64,000 nucleotides of DNA. Source: Haloprofundus salilacus (GTDB taxonomy: Archaea > Halobacteriota > Halobacteria > Halobacteriales > Haloferacaceae). The DNA is taken from assembly GCF_020150815.1 (NCBI RefSeq), contig NZ_CP083723.1, positions 2,170,001-2,234,000 on the forward strand, written 5' to 3'. How positions within the stretch are numbered: position 1 is the first letter of the stretch; each line of letters starts with the position of its first letter. Of this stretch, positions 6,723 to 47,466 are shown in pieces. The notes beneath the pieces are model-generated. The model made no database searches, was not told the DNA's origin, and saw nothing but the letters and a program-made list of their open reading frames with translations. The position numbers and the translations under genes are program-made.

Positions 6723-9041
6723 ATGGCTGTACTTTGGCTGGATGACGTACGCGCCGCCGACATCGACTCCGTCGGTGGTAAGGGTGCCTCGCTGGGCGAA
6801 CTCACGGCCGCGAGGCTTCCCGTCCCGCCGGGATTCGTCGTGACCGCCGACACCTATCGGACGTTCATCGAGGAGGCAGGCATCGACGAGGAACTGTTCG
6901 AGGCGATGGAGATCGATCCCGAGGACTCGAAGGCGCTCGCCGCCGCCCACGAGCGCGCTCACGAACTCATCACGGAGACGGAACTCCCCGAGGACGTTCG
7001 CGAGGAGATTCTGGAGGCGTACCGCTCCGTCGGGGACGGGGAAGCGTTCGTCGCCGTCCGGTCGTCGGCCACCGCCGAGGACCTGCCGGACGCCTCCTTC
7101 GCCGGTCAACAGGAGACGTTCCTCAACGTCCGCGAGGAGAAACTCGTCGAGCGCGTCAAGGAGTGCTGGGCGTCGCTGTTCTCGCAGCGCGCCATCTACT
7201 ACCGGACGCGACAGGGCTTCTCGCACGACAAAGTCGACATCGCCGTCGTCGTCCAGCAGATGGTCGACGCCGAGAAGAGCGGCGTGATGTTCACGTCGCA
7301 CCCCTCGACGGGCGAACCGCGCATCATCATCGAGGCAGCGTGGGGACTCGGCGAAGCCGTTGTCTCCGGGTCGGTGTCGCCCGACAACTACGTCGTCGAC
7401 CGCGAGACCGCGAGCGTCGAGGAGGAGACGCTCGCCGACAAGAAGCTGATGATGGTCAAAGACCAAGAGACGGGCGAGACGTCGACCGTGGACGTCCCCG
7501 AGGAGAAGCGCACCGCACGCGTGCTCTCGGACGGCGAAATCGAGCGCCTCGTCGAACTCGGCTGCGAGGTCGAAGACCATTACGGGACGCCGCAGGACGT
7601 GGAGTGGGCTGTCCACGAGGGCGAGGTGTACATGCTCCAGTCGCGACCGATAACGACGATATCCGACGACAGCGGCGTCGAGATGGCCGCTGACGGCGAC
7701 GGGGTCGACGCGACGACGCTATCGTCGAACGGCAACAGCGGGAAAAACGAGACGGAGTCGTCGAGCGGGGACACGCTCCTCCGCGGACTGGGCGCGAGTC
7801 CCGGCATCGTCTCGGGCGCGGCCCGCATCGTCACCAAACTCGACCAGCTCGACAAAGTCTCCGACGGCGACATCATCGTCACCGAGATGACGATGCCCGA
7901 CATGGTGCCGGCAATGAAGCGCGCCGCCGGCATCGTCACCGACGAGGGTGGGATGACGAGCCACGCCTCCATCGTTTCGCGGGAACTCGGCGTCCCCGCC
8001 GTCGTCGGCACCGGCAGCGCGACTCGCGAACTCTCGGACGGGCAAGTAATCACCATCGACGGCGACAAAGGGACGATTCGCGAGGGGAAGCAGACGAAGA
8101 AGGACGAGGAACACGAACCCGTCGAGGAGGTTCGGCCGAAGACGCCGGTCAAACCGATGACCGCGACGGAGGTGAAAGTGAACGTCTCTATCCCCGAAGC
8201 GGCGGAACGCGCCGCGGCCACCGGCGCGGACGGCGTCGGCTTGCTCCGGATCGAGCACATGGTGCTGTCGCTCGGAAAAACGCCCGAGAAGTACATCGCC
8301 GACAACGGCGAGAAGGCGTACGTCGACGAACTCGTCGAGGGAATCCGGACCGTCGCCGACGAGTTCTACCCCCGTTCGGTCCGGGTCCGAACGCTCGACG
8401 CGCCGACCGACGAGTTCCGCCAGTTGGAGGGCGGCGACGGCGAACCGAAGGAACACAACCCGATGCTAGGTTACCGCGGCATCCGTCGGAGTCTCGACAC
8501 GCCCGAGGCGTTCGCCCACGAACTGGAGGCGTTCCGCCACCTCTGGGAGATGGGCTACGACAACGTCGAACTGATGCTGCCGCTGGTCAACGACGCCGAG
8601 GACGTCTACCGCGCGACGAAACTCATGCGCGAAGCGGGCATCGACCCCGAGAAGCGGACGTGGGGCGTGATGATAGAGACGCCCGCGAGCGCCCTGTCGG
8701 TCCGCGAACTCGCGGAGGCGGGCATCGACTTCGCCTCCTTCGGGACGAACGACCTCACCCAGTACACGCTGGCGGTCGACCGCAACAACGAGAACGTCGC
8801 CGACCGATTCGACGAACTCCACCCCGCCGTGTTGGAACTCATCGGTTCGACCATCGAGACGTGCCGCGAACTCGGCGTGGATACGAGCATCTGCGGGCAG
8901 GCCGGGTCGAAACCGCAGATGGTCCAGTTCCTCGTCAACGAGGGAATCACCTCCATCAGCGCCAACATCGACGCGGTGCGCGACGTCCAACACGAGGTCA
9001 AGCGCGTCGAACAGAAACTGGTGCTCGACTCGGTTCGCTGA
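6723..9041 (+). CDS. ppsA: Phosphoenolpyruvate synthase (pyruvate, water dikinase)
   Basis: PpsA makes PEP from pyruvate and ATP, the gluconeogenic counterpart of Pyk at 14752. The 772-residue protein has the ATP-binding domain first (VGGKGASLGEL near 18, SSATAEDLPDASFAGQQ near 117). The swivelling phosphohistidine domain follows, with His414 in GGMTSHASIVSREL. A C-terminal PEP/pyruvate TIM barrel ends with GTNDLTQYTLAVDR and the catalytic cysteine region SICGQAGSKP. An acidic linker of about 40 residues around 320-350 is a likely haloadaptation. The ATG has a TATA element at leaderless distance. Confidence 0.96.
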   Translation: MAVLWLDDVRAADIDSVGGKGASLGELTAARLPVPPGFVVTADTYRTFIEEAGIDEELFEAMEIDPEDSKALAAAHERAHELITETELPEDVREEILEAYRSVGDGEAFVAVRSSATAEDLPDASFAGQQETFLNVREEKLVERVKECWASLFSQRAIYYRTRQGFSHDKVDIAVVVQQMVDAEKSGVMFTSHPSTGEPRIIIEAAWGLGEAVVSGSVSPDNYVVDRETASVEEETLADKKLMMVKDQETGETSTVDVPEEKRTARVLSDGEIERLVELGCEVEDHYGTPQDVEWAVHEGEVYMLQSRPITTISDDSGVEMAADGDGVDATTLSSNGNSGKNETESSSGDTLLRGLGASPGIVSGAARIVTKLDQLDKVSDGDIIVTEMTMPDMVPAMKRAAGIVTDEGGMTSHASIVSRELGVPAVVGTGSATRELSDGQVITIDGDKGTIREGKQTKKDEEHEPVEEVRPKTPVKPMTATEVKVNVSIPEAAERAAATGADGVGLLRIEHMVLSLGKTPEKYIADNGEKAYVDELVEGIRTVADEFYPRSVRVRTLDAPTDEFRQLEGGDGEPKEHNPMLGYRGIRRSLDTPEAFAHELEAFRHLWEMGYDNVELMLPLVNDAEDVYRATKLMREAGIDPEKRTWGVMIETPASALSVRELAEAGIDFASFGTNDLTQYTLAVDRNNENVADRFDELHPAVLELIGSTIETCRELGVDTSICGQAGSKPQMVQFLVNEGITSISANIDAVRDVQHEVKRVEQKLVLDSVR

Positions 9042-41737: not shown

Positions 41738-42448
41738 TTACTCGGCGTGGGCGTCTTTGACGCCTTCGACGGTTTCGCGGACCGCGTCGACGCCCTCGTC
41801 GTGGAGCAGGTCGCCGACGACGACTACGTCGGCGTGTTGACCCATCTCGTAGGCGGCGTCGTAGCTGCGGATGCCGCCGCCATAGAACAGCGTCGCGTCG
41901 TCGAGCGCGTCGTGGGCGGCCTGTACTTTCTCGGTGTCGCCGTACATGCCGGAGTACTCGACGTAGACGATGTCCTGGCCGAACATCTTCTCGGCGACGG
42001 CGGCCCACGCCGACACGTCGTCGACGGACTGGTCGCAGTCAGCGTCGGTCAACTGCGCGACCGAGGCCTCCGGATTGAGGACGATGTACGCCTCGGTGTG
42101 CGTGCGCTCCCAGTCGAGACCGTTCTCGATGCGGACCCACTCTTTGTGCGCGCCGGTGACCCAGAAGGAGTCGCCGGCGTTGAACACGGTCGGGATGAGG
42201 TAGCCGTCAAGCGCGTCGTCGTCGACGACGACGGCGGGGTTCGACGGTTCCTGGTACAGCGGGACGTCGTACTCGGCGCAGGCGTCGACGACGCGCTGCA
42301 TCTTCTCTGTGGTGATGTCGAGCGTACCGCCGATTTCGATGGCGTCGGTTCCGGTCTCACAGACGTCGGCGAACGTCTCGCCGTCGACGAGGTCCTTGTC
42401 CGGGTCGATTTTGAGGATGTGGTCCCACGATTCCCACGACAGAGTCAT
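41738..42448 (-). CDS. Geranylgeranylglyceryl phosphate synthase (PcrB family)
   Basis: Makes the first ether bond of archaeal lipids from sn-glycerol-1-phosphate and geranylgeranyl diphosphate. A 236-residue barrel. Family marks: [11 protein letters not shown] near the start, the pair [10 protein letters not shown], the central [21 protein letters not shown], the [10 protein letters not shown] strand and the phosphate loop [22 protein letters not shown] element about 20-27 nt upstream fits a leaderless start at ATG 42448. Confidence 0.93.
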
Positions 42449-42587
42449 TGGACTGTGTACTCCGGGGAGGCGTTAAAAAGGGTGCGGAACGCTAGTTCGG
42501 AGGGCCAGCAACCGACTTATACAAGAGAACCTTGGCGAGATACCATGGGTTCATGTCAACTAGAATAACTCAATCGAAGTAGTTACT

Positions 42588-42866
42588 ATGGCTCAAGCGA
42601 CGCTTACAGAGTTAGCATATCTAAACTCGAATCTGTTTTTGAACCACTACCTCAACGAGCGAATTTCCGACTCGGGGAGTGGGACTGTGACGATGAGGCT
42701 GAAGCGGTCTTCGAGGAACTCCAGTCGCTGTACGAAGTAGAGAAAGGGCTGCTCGGTTCATACAAGGAAGACGAACTGCTGGACTCGTGGATAGACGAGG
42801 TGATAGAAGCGCTTGGATTCGGGACGCTGTCGGAGACGACGCTCCCCGGTGGCGGAGTAGCTAGTG
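42588..42866 (+). pseudogene. Truncated, frameshifted start of a type IIG / PglX-like restriction-modification protein
   Basis: ATG 42588 opens MAQATLTELAYLNSNLFLNH then YLNERISDSG. After a single-base slip near 42672-42677 the reading continues EWDCDDEAEAVFEELQSLYE, KGLLGSYKEDELLDSWIDEV, ALGFGTLSETTLPGGG. From memory this matches the N-terminus of haloarchaeal Eco57I-type methylase-nucleases, also used as PglX in BREX-like systems. Those proteins have over 1000 residues; here homology ends near residue 93, and unrelated sequence runs to the topA end. GC content is lower than in neighbours. ACTTATACAAG near 42513 may be an old promoter. Remnant of a defence gene. Confidence 0.6.
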
Positions 42867-42997
42867 GATTCACTGCGAGCGAACGAAGTGAGCGAGCAGG
42901 CCGACAACTGAGTGGAGGTGCGAAGCACCGAAACGAAGGAGTAGTGTTTTTGGTCCAGCTTTTACCGAGCGAAACTGCGCAGCGTAAAAGGTGGAAG
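42867..42997. other. Junction sequence with small inverted repeats after topA
   Basis: Noncoding tail between the remnant and topA. It holds a hairpin GGTGC-GAA-GCACC (42918-42930) and the inverted repeat CTTTTAC (42959-42965)/GTAAAAG (42984-42990), 8 nt past the topA stop, which could end topA transcription. The text around TGAGTGGAGGTGCGAAGCAC resembles a repeat-like tail I remember from other haloarchaeal junctions. Confidence 0.4.
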
Positions 42998-45514
42998 TTA
43001 GTCCGCTTTCGCCTGCCAGTCCCGAACCGTGTCCGCGCCGACGCCCTCAACGCTCGACGCTACGTCGTCGGGGTCGGCGTCCTTCAATCCGGGCACGTCG
43101 TCGATGCCCGCCTCCTTCAGTTTCTCCGCCGTCTTCTCGCCGATGCCGGAGATACTCTGGAGTTCGTCGCCGCCGACCTGCTGGGCCTGGTACTCGCGGT
43201 AGTTGCAGATCGGACAGCCGAGTTCCCACGGCTCGTCGCCGTTGTGGACGACCAGGTGGGGGAGTCCGTGCTCGTCGCACTCCTCGTCGGTGACCTCTAT
43301 CTCGCCGCGGCGCGGCAGCGGCAGCGAGTAGTCGCACTCCGGATAGCGGGTACAGCCGACGAGACGAGAGCCGGAACGGAGTTGCTTGATAGCCAACTCG
43401 CCCCCGTGTTCCTCACCACAGTCGGGACACGCGCCGATTATCAGGTCGTCCTGCTCGTCGGCCTCGTCCGCCTTGCACTGCGGACAGCCGTGGACGAACG
43501 TCTTGCGTCCGGCGAGCATCTTCACGTGGTGGAGGCCGTGGTCCTCGCACTCGTCTTCGAGGATGAGCGGCTTGCCCGTCGAGGGAAGCGGAAGGGTGTA
43601 CTCGCAGTCGGGGTAGCCGTCGCAGCCGACGAAGTACGAGCCGTACCGGCTCTTGCGGACGAGCAGGTCCGCGCCGCACTCCGGACACGGCCCGAGCGTC
43701 TTGTCCGCCTTCAGGGATTTCTGCAGTTGGCTGCCCAACTCGTCGCTGGACTCCATCAGCCCCTCGAAGACGGCTTCGAGCATCTCGCGGGACTCCTCGG
43801 TCACGTCTTCGAGGTTCTTCTCGCCGTCGGCGATGGCGAGCATATCGGATTCGAGTTGCGCGGTCATCTCGTCGGAGACGATGCGGTCGGCGAACTCCTC
43901 GGACGCGCTGACGACGGCGCGGGCGAGGCGGGTCGGCCGCGGCGGGTCGCTCTCGATGTAGTTTCGGTCGTAGAGCTTCTGAATCACGTCGTGGCGCGTC
44001 GCCTTCGTCCCGATGCCCATCTTCTCCATCGTCTCGATGAGCCGCGACTGGCCGTACCGCCGCGGCGGCTGGGTCTCCTTGGCCTCGAAGCGGGTGTCGG
44101 TGACCGCGAGTTCCTCGCCCTCCGCCACGTCGGGGACGAAGCTCTCGGTGTTGTTGAAGTACGGGTAGACGGCGTGGTAGCCCTCCTTGACGAGGCGCTT
44201 GCCGTTGGCCTTCAGCGAGAGCGGTTCGCTGTCGGCGTCCACGTCGGCGACGACGCGGAGATGCTCCCACTTCGCCGCCTCGGCGACGGTGGCGAAGAAG
44301 CGCCGGACGACGAGCTCGTACACCTCGTACTCGTCCTCGGAGACGTCCGCCGAGGAGGGGAGTTCGCCCGTCGGGTGGATCGGCGGGTGGTCGGTCGTCT
44401 CTTCGTCGCCCTCCGTCGCCGTGAGTTCGTCGAGTTCGAGCAGCGACTCGGCGTCGTCGCCAAAGCGCCGGGTGCCGACGAACTCGGAGACCAGTTCTTC
44501 GGGGTCCAGATCGTCCGGGTAGACGGTGTTGTCGGTTCGCGGGTAGGTGATGTAGCCGGCCGTGTAGAGGTCCTCGGCGATGCTCATCGCGCGCTGGGCG
44601 GAGTAGCCGATGCTGCCCGCCGCGCGGATGAACTGCGTGGTGTTGAACGGCGCGGGCGGCTTGTCCGTCCGCGTGCGGCGTCGAACCGCCCGGACCGTCG
44701 CCGACGAGGCGGTCTGCAGGGTGTCGTACACCGCGTTCGCGGTCTCCTCGTCCCAGACTCGTTCGGCCTCGTTGCCGTCCTCGTCGGGATAGAAGTACTG
44801 CGCCTCGAAGTTCTCGCCCGTCTCCGACTTTTCGAGGTCGGCGAACAGCTCCCAGTACGCCTCCGGGTCGAACGCGTCGATCTCGCGCTCGCGGTCGACG
44901 ATGAGCTTCAGCGTCGGTCCCTGCACCCGGCCGACGGAGATGAAGTCGTTGCCGAGCTGTCGGGCCGACAACGAGAGAAAACGCGTCAGCGCTGCGCCCC
45001 AGACGAGGTCGATAATCTGACGGGCCTCGCCCGCGGCGGCAAGGTCGAAGTCGAGGTCTTCCGGGTTCTCGAACGCCTCCGTCACCTCGTTTTTCGTGAT
45101 GGAGGAGAAGCGAACGCGGTCGATGGGCGCGTCCTCGTTCACGTCGCGGACGAGTTCGTACGTTTCCTTCCCGATTAGTTCACCCTCACGGTCGTAGTCG
45201 GTGGCGATAGTGACCCGGGAGGCGTGGCGGGCGAGACGTCGCAGCGCGGCGACGATATTCTCCTGCGTCGGGTGTTTGTCGATGGGTGCGTCGATGAGTT
45301 CGACGGGTTCGACGTCGCGCCAGTCGTTGTACTCCGACGGGAAGTCGACGCCGACGACGTGGCCCGACAGCCCGATGCAGCGCTTGCCGCCCCACTTGTA
45401 GACGTTCACCCCGTTCATCCGCTCGGCCTCTGCGGAGTCGCCGCTGAGGATGTCCGCGATGCGTCTCGCGGCGTTGTCCTTCTCGGTGATGATCAGTTCC
45501 GGCCCCTTGCTCAT
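42998..45514 (-). CDS. topA: DNA topoisomerase I (type IA)
   Basis: Relaxes negative supercoils by cutting one strand. The 838-residue protein has the Toprim domain (ELIITEKDNAARRIADIL, with DYDREGE at 107-113) and the active-site tyrosine Y324 in GYITYPRTDNT. The C-terminal part holds several zinc ribbons (CPECGADLLVRKSRYGSYFV; CPDCGEEHGGELA; CPICNYREYQ) and a terminal helix-hairpin-helix (LQSISGIGEKTAEKLKEAGI). ATG 45514 is preceded by GCTTTAGG 27-34 nt upstream, indicating a leaderless start; the frame stays open further upstream but is not coding. Confidence 0.96.
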   Translation of the reverse strand: MSKGPELIITEKDNAARRIADILSGDSAEAERMNGVNVYKWGGKRCIGLSGHVVGVDFPSEYNDWRDVEPVELIDAPIDKHPTQENIVAALRRLARHASRVTIATDYDREGELIGKETYELVRDVNEDAPIDRVRFSSITKNEVTEAFENPEDLDFDLAAAGEARQIIDLVWGAALTRFLSLSARQLGNDFISVGRVQGPTLKLIVDREREIDAFDPEAYWELFADLEKSETGENFEAQYFYPDEDGNEAERVWDEETANAVYDTLQTASSATVRAVRRRTRTDKPPAPFNTTQFIRAAGSIGYSAQRAMSIAEDLYTAGYITYPRTDNTVYPDDLDPEELVSEFVGTRRFGDDAESLLELDELTATEGDEETTDHPPIHPTGELPSSADVSEDEYEVYELVVRRFFATVAEAAKWEHLRVVADVDADSEPLSLKANGKRLVKEGYHAVYPYFNNTESFVPDVAEGEELAVTDTRFEAKETQPPRRYGQSRLIETMEKMGIGTKATRHDVIQKLYDRNYIESDPPRPTRLARAVVSASEEFADRIVSDEMTAQLESDMLAIADGEKNLEDVTEESREMLEAVFEGLMESSDELGSQLQKSLKADKTLGPCPECGADLLVRKSRYGSYFVGCDGYPDCEYTLPLPSTGKPLILEDECEDHGLHHVKMLAGRKTFVHGCPQCKADEADEQDDLIIGACPDCGEEHGGELAIKQLRSGSRLVGCTRYPECDYSLPLPRRGEIEVTDEECDEHGLPHLVVHNGDEPWELGCPICNYREYQAQQVGGDELQSISGIGEKTAEKLKEAGIDDVPGLKDADPDDVASSVEGVGADTVRDWQAKAD

Positions 45515-45666
45515 TGAGAGGCGATATGCGAAGGGGCGGCCTAAAGCTTTCGCGGTCCTGCTCTCCGAAAACCGCAAGCGGGCGTCGATTCGCCCGCGTG
45601 TGAGCGCCCGTGCAACGTTGCGCTCGCTCGCGGACACGCGTGGTCTGTCCCCTCCCGACCGTGCTC

Positions 45667-47466
45667 TCAGACGTGCTCGTCCAAGAACGCCCCAATCCGC
45701 TCGAACTCCTCGACGAGGTTCGACCGCGTCGTCGTGTGGTGGCCTTCGTCCTCGAAGACGAGTTTCTCTACCGGCACGCCGCGCTCGCGCACCCGCTCGA
45801 CTATCTGCTCCGTCTCGCCGACGGGGACGCGCGGGTCGTTCGCGCCGTGTTGGACGAACAACGGACACCGGATTCTATCGATGTTGTGAATCGGACTGAT
45901 CTCTCGCAGCAACTCCCGGTCGTCCAGCGACCCGTACTCGGCGCTTCGGTGGTCGCGCCGCCACTCGCCAGTGTTCTCTAGAAAGGTCTCGAAGTCGGCG
46001 ATGCCGACGAACTCCACCGCCGCAGCCCAGACGTCGGTATACTCAGTGATGGCCGCGAGTACCATGAACCCGCCGTAGGAGCGGCCGTAGGCGACGATCC
46101 GATCGGGATCGACGGCGTCCTGCTCGTACAGCCAGTCGACGGCCGCTCTAACGTCTTTCACCGAGTCCATCCGCTTCTCGCGGTCGTCGAGGTGGGTGTA
46201 GGCCTTCCCGTAGCCCGACGACCCGCGGACGTTCGGTTCGAGCACGGCGTACCCCTCGTTGACGAAGAACTGCTTCGTCGGGTAGAACCACGGTCGCCGC
46301 TGGTGCTCCGGGCCGCCGTGGATGTCGACGATGACCGGGGTCACGCCCGGTTCGGCGTCCTCGGGAAGCGTCCAGTACGCCGGTATCGTGCGACCGTCGA
46401 ACGACTCGTACCGAATCGTCTCGGCGCTCCGGAACGTCGACCGCGGGACGCCGACGGTGTCCATCGGCGTCCAGCGCGTCGGTCCACTGTTCGATTCTAC
46501 CTCTCCGGCGTAGACGCCGAACGGTTCGCTATTCTCCGAGAGCGTGAACGCGAATCGCTCGCCGTCGGGACTGAGCGTCACGTCGGCGGCGACACCCTCC
46601 GGCAGGTCGACTTCTTCGACTTCGACCGCCGTCTCGTCGGTGAGTTCGCCCGCGTAGAGTTCGGAGTACCCGTCGACGTTGCGACCGTAGACGATTGTTC
46701 GAGAATCGCGGTCGAAGACGAACTCCTCGACGTTCCAGTCACCGCCCGGAACGACGACGTCGAGAGCGGCCGAGTCGAGGTCGAGTCGGCCGAGATAGCT
46801 CGTATCCGCGTCGTAGTTCGTCACCAGATACAGCGCGTCGTCGTCGGGACCGAACGCCACGCAGTCGTAGCTGGCCTCGCCCTCGGGGGTGACAACGCGT
46901 ACCTCGCCGGTTTTGAGGTCGAGAATCGACAACTCTTGGTCGAAACTCGCGTGCGCCTCGCGGAGCGCAAGCGTCTCCCTGTCGGGTCCCCAACCGAGGA
47001 CTTCGAGCCAACCGTCGGAGTCGAAGACGCGTTCCGCGTCGTCGGGGCCGCCGTTTCGCGACTGGACGTACACGTCGAACGCCTGCGCGTCCCTTCGGTT
47101 CGAGGTGAACGCGAACCGATCACCGGAGGGCGACCACCCGCCCCAGCCGTGTATCGCCTCGGGGCGCTCGGTGAGGCCGTGAATCGTCCCGTCGGCGGCG
47201 TCGTAGCGGAACAGTTGGTCGCGCTCGTCGCTGCCCCGATCCATTCCGAAGACGAACTCCTCGCGCGTCGGCGACCAGTCGACGAAGGAGATGCGCTCCT
47301 CGAAGGCGGTGAGTCGCGTCGGCGGCGCGTCCGCCTCGTCGAGCGTCCAGATCTGGGGCGTGCCGGTCGTGTCGCGGAGGAACGTGAGTTGGTCGCCGTT
47401 CGGCGAGAATGCGGGCTGTCGGGCGGCGTCGATGCCGAGATAGCGAGCGACGGCGTACTGTGGCAT
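45667..47466 (-). CDS. S9-family (prolyl oligopeptidase-type) peptidase
   Basis: A 599-residue protein. The first ~350 residues form a beta propeller with TolB-like blades (RQPAFSPNGDQLTFLRD, WSPSGDRFAFTSN, LSPDGERFAFTLS). The alpha/beta hydrolase domain follows with nucleophile S463 in YGRSYGGFM, D544 in NDPRVPVGE and H576 in DEGHHTTTR. It probably trims peptides in the cytoplasm, since no signal peptide is seen. ATG 47466 precedes PQYAVARYLGIDA; an upstream in-frame ATG is less likely. The gene lies behind topA on the same strand with 152 bp between. Confidence 0.93.
   Translation of the reverse strand: MPQYAVARYLGIDAARQPAFSPNGDQLTFLRDTTGTPQIWTLDEADAPPTRLTAFEERISFVDWSPTREEFVFGMDRGSDERDQLFRYDAADGTIHGLTERPEAIHGWGGWSPSGDRFAFTSNRRDAQAFDVYVQSRNGGPDDAERVFDSDGWLEVLGWGPDRETLALREAHASFDQELSILDLKTGEVRVVTPEGEASYDCVAFGPDDDALYLVTNYDADTSYLGRLDLDSAALDVVVPGGDWNVEEFVFDRDSRTIVYGRNVDGYSELYAGELTDETAVEVEEVDLPEGVAADVTLSPDGERFAFTLSENSEPFGVYAGEVESNSGPTRWTPMDTVGVPRSTFRSAETIRYESFDGRTIPAYWTLPEDAEPGVTPVIVDIHGGPEHQRRPWFYPTKQFFVNEGYAVLEPNVRGSSGYGKAYTHLDDREKRMDSVKDVRAAVDWLYEQDAVDPDRIVAYGRSYGGFMVLAAITEYTDVWAAAVEFVGIADFETFLENTGEWRRDHRSAEYGSLDDRELLREISPIHNIDRIRCPLFVQHGANDPRVPVGETEQIVERVRERGVPVEKLVFEDEGHHTTTRSNLVEEFERIGAFLDEHV

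What the first reader, a model, noticed from the sequence alone, without database searches (positions are those of the whole stretch)
42500..42997. Remnant of a type IIG / PglX-like restriction-modification gene next to topA
The first ~93 codons of a large Eco57I-like methylase-nuclease can be read across a single-base slip near 42675, then homology stops abruptly. GC content drops here, and a TATA-like ACTTATACAAG remains upstream. It suggests a lost defence island (restriction or BREX-like) between GGGP synthase and topA, and may mark an insertion hotspot.
Basis: partly seen in the sequence, partly recalled or inferred. Interest (0 to 1): 0.55.

Follow-up and report, generated by a model that had tools for sequence, protein, structure and literature searches.

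The report
Broken restriction gene at swap site
A scrap of a broken DNA-restriction gene sits between two core genes of a salt-loving archaeon, and in many relatives that same gap holds intact, broken or quite different restriction genes, so it looks like a place where such defences are repeatedly swapped and lost.

Summary
Window 42588-42856 encodes, in two frames, about the first 87-91 residues of a ~1400-aa Eco57I/TaqI_C type IIG-like restriction-modification protein (50-65% identity to N-termini in relatives). It has a one-base slip near 42675, then stops before the nuclease motif (D94, E128-x-K130).

GGGP synthase and topA are neighbours in 70 of 98 family genomes compared, 56 to 10,510 bp apart. 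In 23 of these 70 (9 of 22 genera) the gap carries restriction genes or their remains: type IIG (13), McrBC-like (4), HNH_2 (4), Mrr (4), DpnII plus D12 methylase (1). Genus g16 has three different systems at this one address. Seven of 58 named type IIG loci, from three families, lie at the same GGGPS. The slot copies are not one clade (AU p 0.0004 and 0.0001).

The BREX part is not supported: intact copies are solo genes, PglX models score far below cut-off, and PglZ is absent from 7 of 8 slot genomes.

Most likely this is an archaeal counterpart of bacterial 'immigration control regions': small cassettes swapped between core genes, probably by homologous recombination, and lost by internal deletion. 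The swap mechanism is inferred.

The parts
41738..42448 (-). GGGP synthase, left core anchor; 5' end faces the gap
42449..42587 (.). GGGPS-remnant spacer, GC 0.49, with TATA-like ACTTATACAAG at 42515-42525
   Evidence: not conserved in G004
42588..42677 (+). Type IIG remnant, first frame, codons 1-30
42674..42856 (+). Type IIG remnant, second frame, up to residue ~87-91; ends before D94 and E128-x-K130
42847..42856 (.). Deletion junction CGGTGGCGGA: fits the gene (LPDGGG in relatives) and equals the right flank of congener G003 (10 bp)
42857..42997 (.). Right flank shared with G003 and G004, not gene; holds a repeat with 10 further weaker copies in the genome and a topA 3' hairpin
42998..45868 (-). 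topA (longest ORF; the true start may lie inside it), right core anchor; 3' end faces the gap

Best explanation
The feature is a dead single-gene restriction-modification cassette: a divergently transcribed ~1400-aa fused nuclease-methylase-specificity gene that lost all but its first ~90 codons through an internal-to-3'-flank deletion (probably at ~9-10 bp of microhomology) and one base. It lies at a recurrent address, the GGGPS-topA gap, where haloarchaea repeatedly acquire, exchange and lose small restriction cassettes. In its intact form the enzyme would methylate its own site on host DNA and cut unmodified incoming DNA. Shown: the remnant, the gap's variability, the diversity of restriction cargo, and more than one origin of the slot copies. 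Inferred: enzyme activity, and exchange by homologous recombination across the conserved flanking genes after DNA uptake or mating, without an integrase of its own.
For: Homology in both frames. The intact slot gene has Eco57I, N6_Mtase, TaqI_C and MmeI_Mtase domains; D94, E128, A129 and K130 are near-invariant in the alignment of 15 rows, in which the window row ends before them. GGGPS and topA are neighbours in 70 of 98 genomes, with gaps of 56-10,510 bp. Restriction genes or remains in 23 of 70 gaps, 9 of 22 genera. Type IIG loci that keep an N-terminus: 8 of 27 family loci are in the slot (tally over); McrC-like close relatives 4 of 14; HNH close relatives 4 of 4. Named loci: 7 of 58 next to GGGPS, in Halorussus (3), Halolamina, Ca. 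Halobonum, Halosimplex, Halomicrobium; GGGPS is the most shared upstream neighbour, 7 loci against 5 for the next. One slot clade is rejected, AU p 0.000446 and 0.000109. Five congeners show three states: type IIG scraps (2), HNH gene (2), near-empty (1).
Against: 47 of 70 gaps hold no restriction gene that I recognised; some hold unrelated genes (PAS/GAF regulators, beta-propeller proteins, DUF2237, LacZ), so the gap is not reserved for defence. It is not the only variable gap nearby: pairwise comparison of 24-62 kb with four congeners shows several others. No rate of restriction cargo in comparable core-gene gaps was measured; the local check covered five ORFs only. Slot copies are clustered on the larger tree (6 changes against 9.5 in shuffles), so part of the pattern is inheritance. 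The ancestral sequence of this copy is unknown, so the microhomology is certain only for the six non-wobble bases of GGG. No recombination event was observed directly.
Confidence: 0.8

Rival explanations
1. Ancient resident: the type IIG gene entered the gap once in a haloarchaeal ancestor, was inherited vertically and was lost many times; other cassettes only fill the scar.
For: Same orientation and ~100-600 bp spacing from GGGPS in the slot copies; slot label clustered on the larger tree, 0 of 500 shuffles as low; C-terminal scraps beside McrBC-like genes in G116 and G006.
Against: Holding slot copies as one clade is rejected; non-slot copies nest inside (G114 with G097, G130 with G033 on starred branches). 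Copies leaving the slot could in part produce this.
Confidence: 0.25
2. BREX PglX: remnant of a multi-gene BREX cluster.
For: PglX models do hit the methylase part (47-113 bits).
Against: Far below cut-offs of 400-900; solo genes in the gap; no PglZ in 7 of 8 slot genomes, and the one in G114 lies on another contig.
Confidence: 0.02
3. DISARM-like: the gene is a DrmMI whose partners act from elsewhere.
For: Best PADLOC model is DrmMI PDLC02643, E 8e-98 to 4e-107 in three intact proteins, mainly over the methylase region.
Against: No partner genes in the gap; type IIG models also score strongly; an MZB (PF09369) hit occurs in all 8 genomes, away from the slot, and in 8 of 14 control genomes, so it says little.
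Confidence: 0.06
4. The ~90-aa piece is a working small protein rather than a pseudogene.
For: Other N-terminal-only scraps of about 100 aa exist (G008 contig C14, G090).
Against: Two frames here; congener G004 keeps a different 36-aa piece fused to the gene's C-terminus; the G008 scrap has in-frame stops.
Confidence: 0.03

Closest known systems
Enteric immigration control region (yjiA-yjiN), reviewed in PMC12707154 (passages read)
   Same: Conserved core anchors, variable restriction cargo including Mrr and McrBC, one system replacing another, and no integrase at an anchor, in contrast to the neighbouring hotspot 37
   Different: Archaeal; other anchors (GGGPS, topA); type IIG is the commonest cargo here and no type I system was recognised; cassettes are mostly one or two genes and many gaps hold none
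Listeria monocytogenes immigration control region lmo0301-lmo0305, PMC10059834 (abstract and outline read)
   Same: Chromosomal gap with type II and type IV restriction systems in exchange
   Different: Within one species, 86% of strains occupied; here across genera and families, about a third of syntenic gaps
Homeocassettes of Halorubrum ezzemoulense, PMC11078007 (passages read)
   Same: Haloarchaeal islands that replace each other between the same core genes, explained there by homologous recombination in the flanks
   Different: Those need at least 50% shared divergent genes; here the alternatives are unrelated restriction types. topA and GGGPS are not mentioned there
Type IIG (Eco57I/MmeI-like) restriction-modification enzymes
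   Same: One polypeptide with a PD-ExK-like N-terminus, N6-adenine methylase and TaqI_C specificity domain
   Different: Only the N-terminal ~6% is left in the window; activity of the haloarchaeal relatives was not tested

Membership tests
Type IIG restriction-modification enzyme (intact relatives) | Adenine-methylase and target-recognition domains in one chain | tested here: met
   Eco57I E 1e-26 to 5e-40 and TaqI_C E 2e-11 to 3e-15 in 3 of 3 intact slot proteins
Type IIG restriction-modification enzyme (intact relatives) | Nuclease motif in the same chain | tested here: met
   D94, E128, K130 near-invariant in the alignment of 15 rows; MmeI_N only a weak hit in one of three (E 4e-4). The motif reading is mine
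Type IIG restriction-modification enzyme (intact relatives) | Single protein cuts and methylates | not testable with these tools
   Needs an assay
Type IIG restriction-modification enzyme (window copy) | Complete open frame | tested here: not met
   Two frames, ~90 of ~1400 codons
BREX | PglX above curated cut-off | tested here: not met
   47-113 bits against 400-900
BREX | PglZ in the cluster | tested here: not met
   No room or partner gene in the intact gaps; 1 of 8 slot genomes has a PglZ, on another contig
DISARM | DrmA/DrmB neighbours | tested here: not met
   Solo genes in the gaps; PF09369 hits lie elsewhere. DrmA was not searched for as such
Immigration control region-like hotspot | Same core anchors with different restriction types in relatives | tested here: met
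   23 of 70 gaps, five restriction types
Immigration control region-like hotspot | Enrichment over other core-gene gaps | tested here: inconclusive
   GGGPS is the commonest upstream neighbour of named type IIG loci (7 of 58); no gap-by-gap baseline
Immigration control region-like hotspot | No integrase at an anchor | tested here: inconclusive
   No integrase among 30 cargo ORFs scanned with Pfam; no tRNA in the window; not every ORF was scanned

The most novel reading that the evidence does not exclude
The GGGPS-topA gap is an order-wide archaeal immigration control region without its own integrase. Restriction cassettes of unrelated types replace one another by recombination between the two core genes, and the leftover ends of the type IIG gene act as docking arms for the next system: McrBC-like genes abut type IIG scraps in G116, G006, G036 and G090, and a CRISPR array abuts one in Halobaculum gomorrense.
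Probability: 0.25. Interest if true: 0.65.

Novelty: new member of a known kind. Interest (0 to 1): 0.5.

Why it matters
It names a fixed chromosomal address, found with type IIG copies in at least three haloarchaeal families, where restriction genes can be looked for and compared: a natural series of full, decaying, replaced and empty states between the same two genes. That makes the patchy distribution of archaeal restriction systems directly testable, and offers intact candidates (such as Halorussus aquaticus, complete genome) for methylome and restriction assays.

Tried and rejected
Rejected: BREX; DISARM membership; a known structured RNA in the gap (no Rfam match up to E 1); viral carriage of this family (57 pattern matches in IMG/VR, none confirmed). 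Pfam found nothing meaningful in the 91-aa piece itself (chance-level Thrombin_light and Hormone_recep hits). The TATA-like box could not be tied to a promoter. The dispersed repeat at 42875-42994 was first suspected of being the insertion's own end; it is shared by congeners with and without the type IIG remnant (G003, G004) and sits after stop codons elsewhere, so I treat it as a topA 3' element.

Literature: seven searches showed no paper describing the GGGPS-topA gap as a restriction site. The main texts of PMC11078007, PMC6471742, PMC10609329 and PMC12988326, searched for terms, hold no 'topoisomerase'; PMC12707154 was searched for other terms.

Full report
What is there. The window is part of contig C1 of a two-contig, 3.73-Mb genome. 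Between GGGPS (41738-42448, minus) and topA (ORF 42998-45868, minus) lie about 550 bp of low-GC DNA (0.52 against 0.65; lowest 0.27% of stretches). A plus-strand reading from 42588 gives the N-terminus of a large protein in frame one to about 42677, then in a second frame. An intact homologue from G011 recovers both pieces from the raw DNA at E 1.8e-26. The joined 91 aa match 30 of 99 relatives, mostly open frames of about 1370-1470 aa.

What the gene was. Intact slot proteins from G011, G022 and G054 carry Eco57I methylase, N6_Mtase, TaqI_C specificity and MmeI_Mtase domains. D94 and E128-A129-K130 are near-invariant, read here as the PD-(D/E)xK nuclease motif. PADLOC gives DrmMI and type IIG models. 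PglX models stay far below cut-off. The gene is alone in the gap in G011, filling 4218 of 4508 bp. The window copy stops before D94, so neither nuclease nor methylase remains. The window's genome has no match to the full protein at E<=1e-30 anywhere.

How it was lost. The right flank of the window matches congener G003, which has no gene in the gap, up to CGGTGGCGGA at 42847-42856. Homologues encode LPDGGG or a variant of it at this point, so the junction fits both sides for 9-10 bp if the wobble bases agreed. This suggests a microhomology deletion from codon ~90 to the 3' flank. Congener G004 has an independent internal deletion, 36 N-terminal residues joined to about 80 C-terminal ones. Two congeners, G001 and G002, hold an HNH_2 endonuclease gene instead, with boundaries close to the GGGPS leader and the topA stop.

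The gap across relatives. GGGPS was found in 98 of 99 and the topA C-terminus in 99 of 99 family genomes. Of the 98 comparable, 70 have the two as neighbours in the same order; 11 are far apart, 10 on opposite strands, 7 on different contigs. Gap length is 56-10,510 bp, median 1013. The 56 gaps of at least 140 bp were examined; the other 14 were taken as empty. Type IIG: open frames in G011, G022, G054 and G114 (1366 aa, diverging from G011 after residue ~841); frameshifted in G130; internally deleted in G059 and G004; N-terminus only in G000 (the window); C-terminal scraps in G116, G033, G028, G006 and a 23-residue scrap in G046. McrBC-like pairs (AAA_5 protein plus a partner without Pfam hit; the name is my inference): G019, G106, G116, G006. 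HNH_2: G001, G002, G103, G046. Mrr: G031, G042, and by similarity G135, G051. DpnII with D12 methylase: G129. The union is 23 of 70 gaps, 9 of 22 genera. Genus g16 has Mrr, decayed type IIG and McrBC-like in its three syntenic species. The remaining 47 hold no restriction gene that I recognised; several carry other genes, and one (G035) carries a ResIII-type helicase that I did not count.

Is it one inheritance? On 26 of 33 aligned homologues (7 short or degenerate rows dropped, among them slot rows G000, G004 and G059) the five slot copies are not one clade: AU p 0.000446, at least three changes forced by starred branches. On 55 rows (52 of 58 named loci plus three) the ten slot copies need 6 changes, at least 4 forced, and one clade is rejected at p 0.000109; but the label is also more clustered than in any of 500 shuffles. 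So both repeated arrival and inheritance contribute. In the named set, 7 of 58 loci adjoin GGGPS, from Haloferacaceae, Haloarculaceae and Haladaptataceae, the commonest upstream neighbour. The next, 5 loci, is confined to Natrinema and Natrialba. Among family loci that keep the N-terminus, 8 of 27 are in the slot (my tally over), although the 70 gaps sum to only 120 kb. In the 13 genomes of other families that I searched for GGGPS, no type IIG match lay beside it, so slot occupancy outside the family rests on the named loci.

Local control. Several other gaps within 24-62 kb also vary among congeners. Five ORFs from them are a molybdopterin oxidoreductase, an NmrA-like protein, a methyltransferase of general SAM type, a GNAT-like protein and one without hit, none of restriction type. 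This is a small control.

Known counterparts. The enteric region between yjiA and yjiN (PMC12707154, passages read) and the Listeria region (PMC10059834, abstract and outline) are the same kind of thing in bacteria. Mutually exclusive islands between core genes, attributed to homologous recombination, are described in Halorubrum ezzemoulense (PMC11078007, passages). PMC10609329 (passages) notes more than one type IIG system per haloarchaeal genome. I found no description of the GGGPS-topA site in seven searches of the held library.

Verdict. Remnant: near certain. Recurrent address for restriction cassettes: well supported. Exchange by flanking recombination: plausible, untested. BREX: no.

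Noticed in passing
window 42875-42994; L002-L008: A repeat with 10 further places in the genome at E<=1e-3 (70-85% identity); copies inspected often sit just after a stop codon and contain a long hairpin. The topA 3' hairpin folds at -15.6 kcal/mol, z -2.8. Similar hairpins lie at the topA end in G003, G004, G011, G022 and G130.
   Followed up: partly
L204 (G090), L202 (G036), L134 (G116), L132 (G006): McrBC-like genes abut N- or C-terminal scraps of the same type IIG family, inside and outside the GGGPS slot, as if one system had been placed in the other's gene.
   Followed up: partly
L044 / L198 (Halobaculum gomorrense) near 7447 / 8001: A 102-aa type IIG N-terminal scrap directly abuts a CRISPR array (repeat GCTTCAACCCCTCATAGGTACATCTGGAAC).
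   Followed up: no
L122:1876-2625, L099:478-1188, L049, L189, L179: A ~240-aa protein without Pfam hit, with a PD...EAK-like motif by eye, follows the type IIG gene or its scrap in several genomes: a possible second subunit.
   Followed up: partly
L108:303-1310, L129:2132-3721: The HNH_2 cassette protein and the McrB-like protein share a ~200-aa N-terminal region (28-41% identity), perhaps a common modified-DNA reader.
   Followed up: no
L172, L174, L184, L186, L187: A second persistent address of the same type IIG family in Natrinema/Natrialba, next to a gene that looks like a CoA-transferase (name recalled).
   Followed up: no
L165: A contig labelled Syntrophomonadaceae (Bacillota MAG) carries a type IIG gene nested among Natrialbaceae copies: probably a misbinned haloarchaeal contig.
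   Followed up: no
L205 (G014), L206 (G024), L207 (G039), L208 (G133): Free-standing C-terminal pieces of the type IIG protein (residues ~1190-1405), some in open frames of 207-358 aa, occur outside the slot.
   Followed up: no
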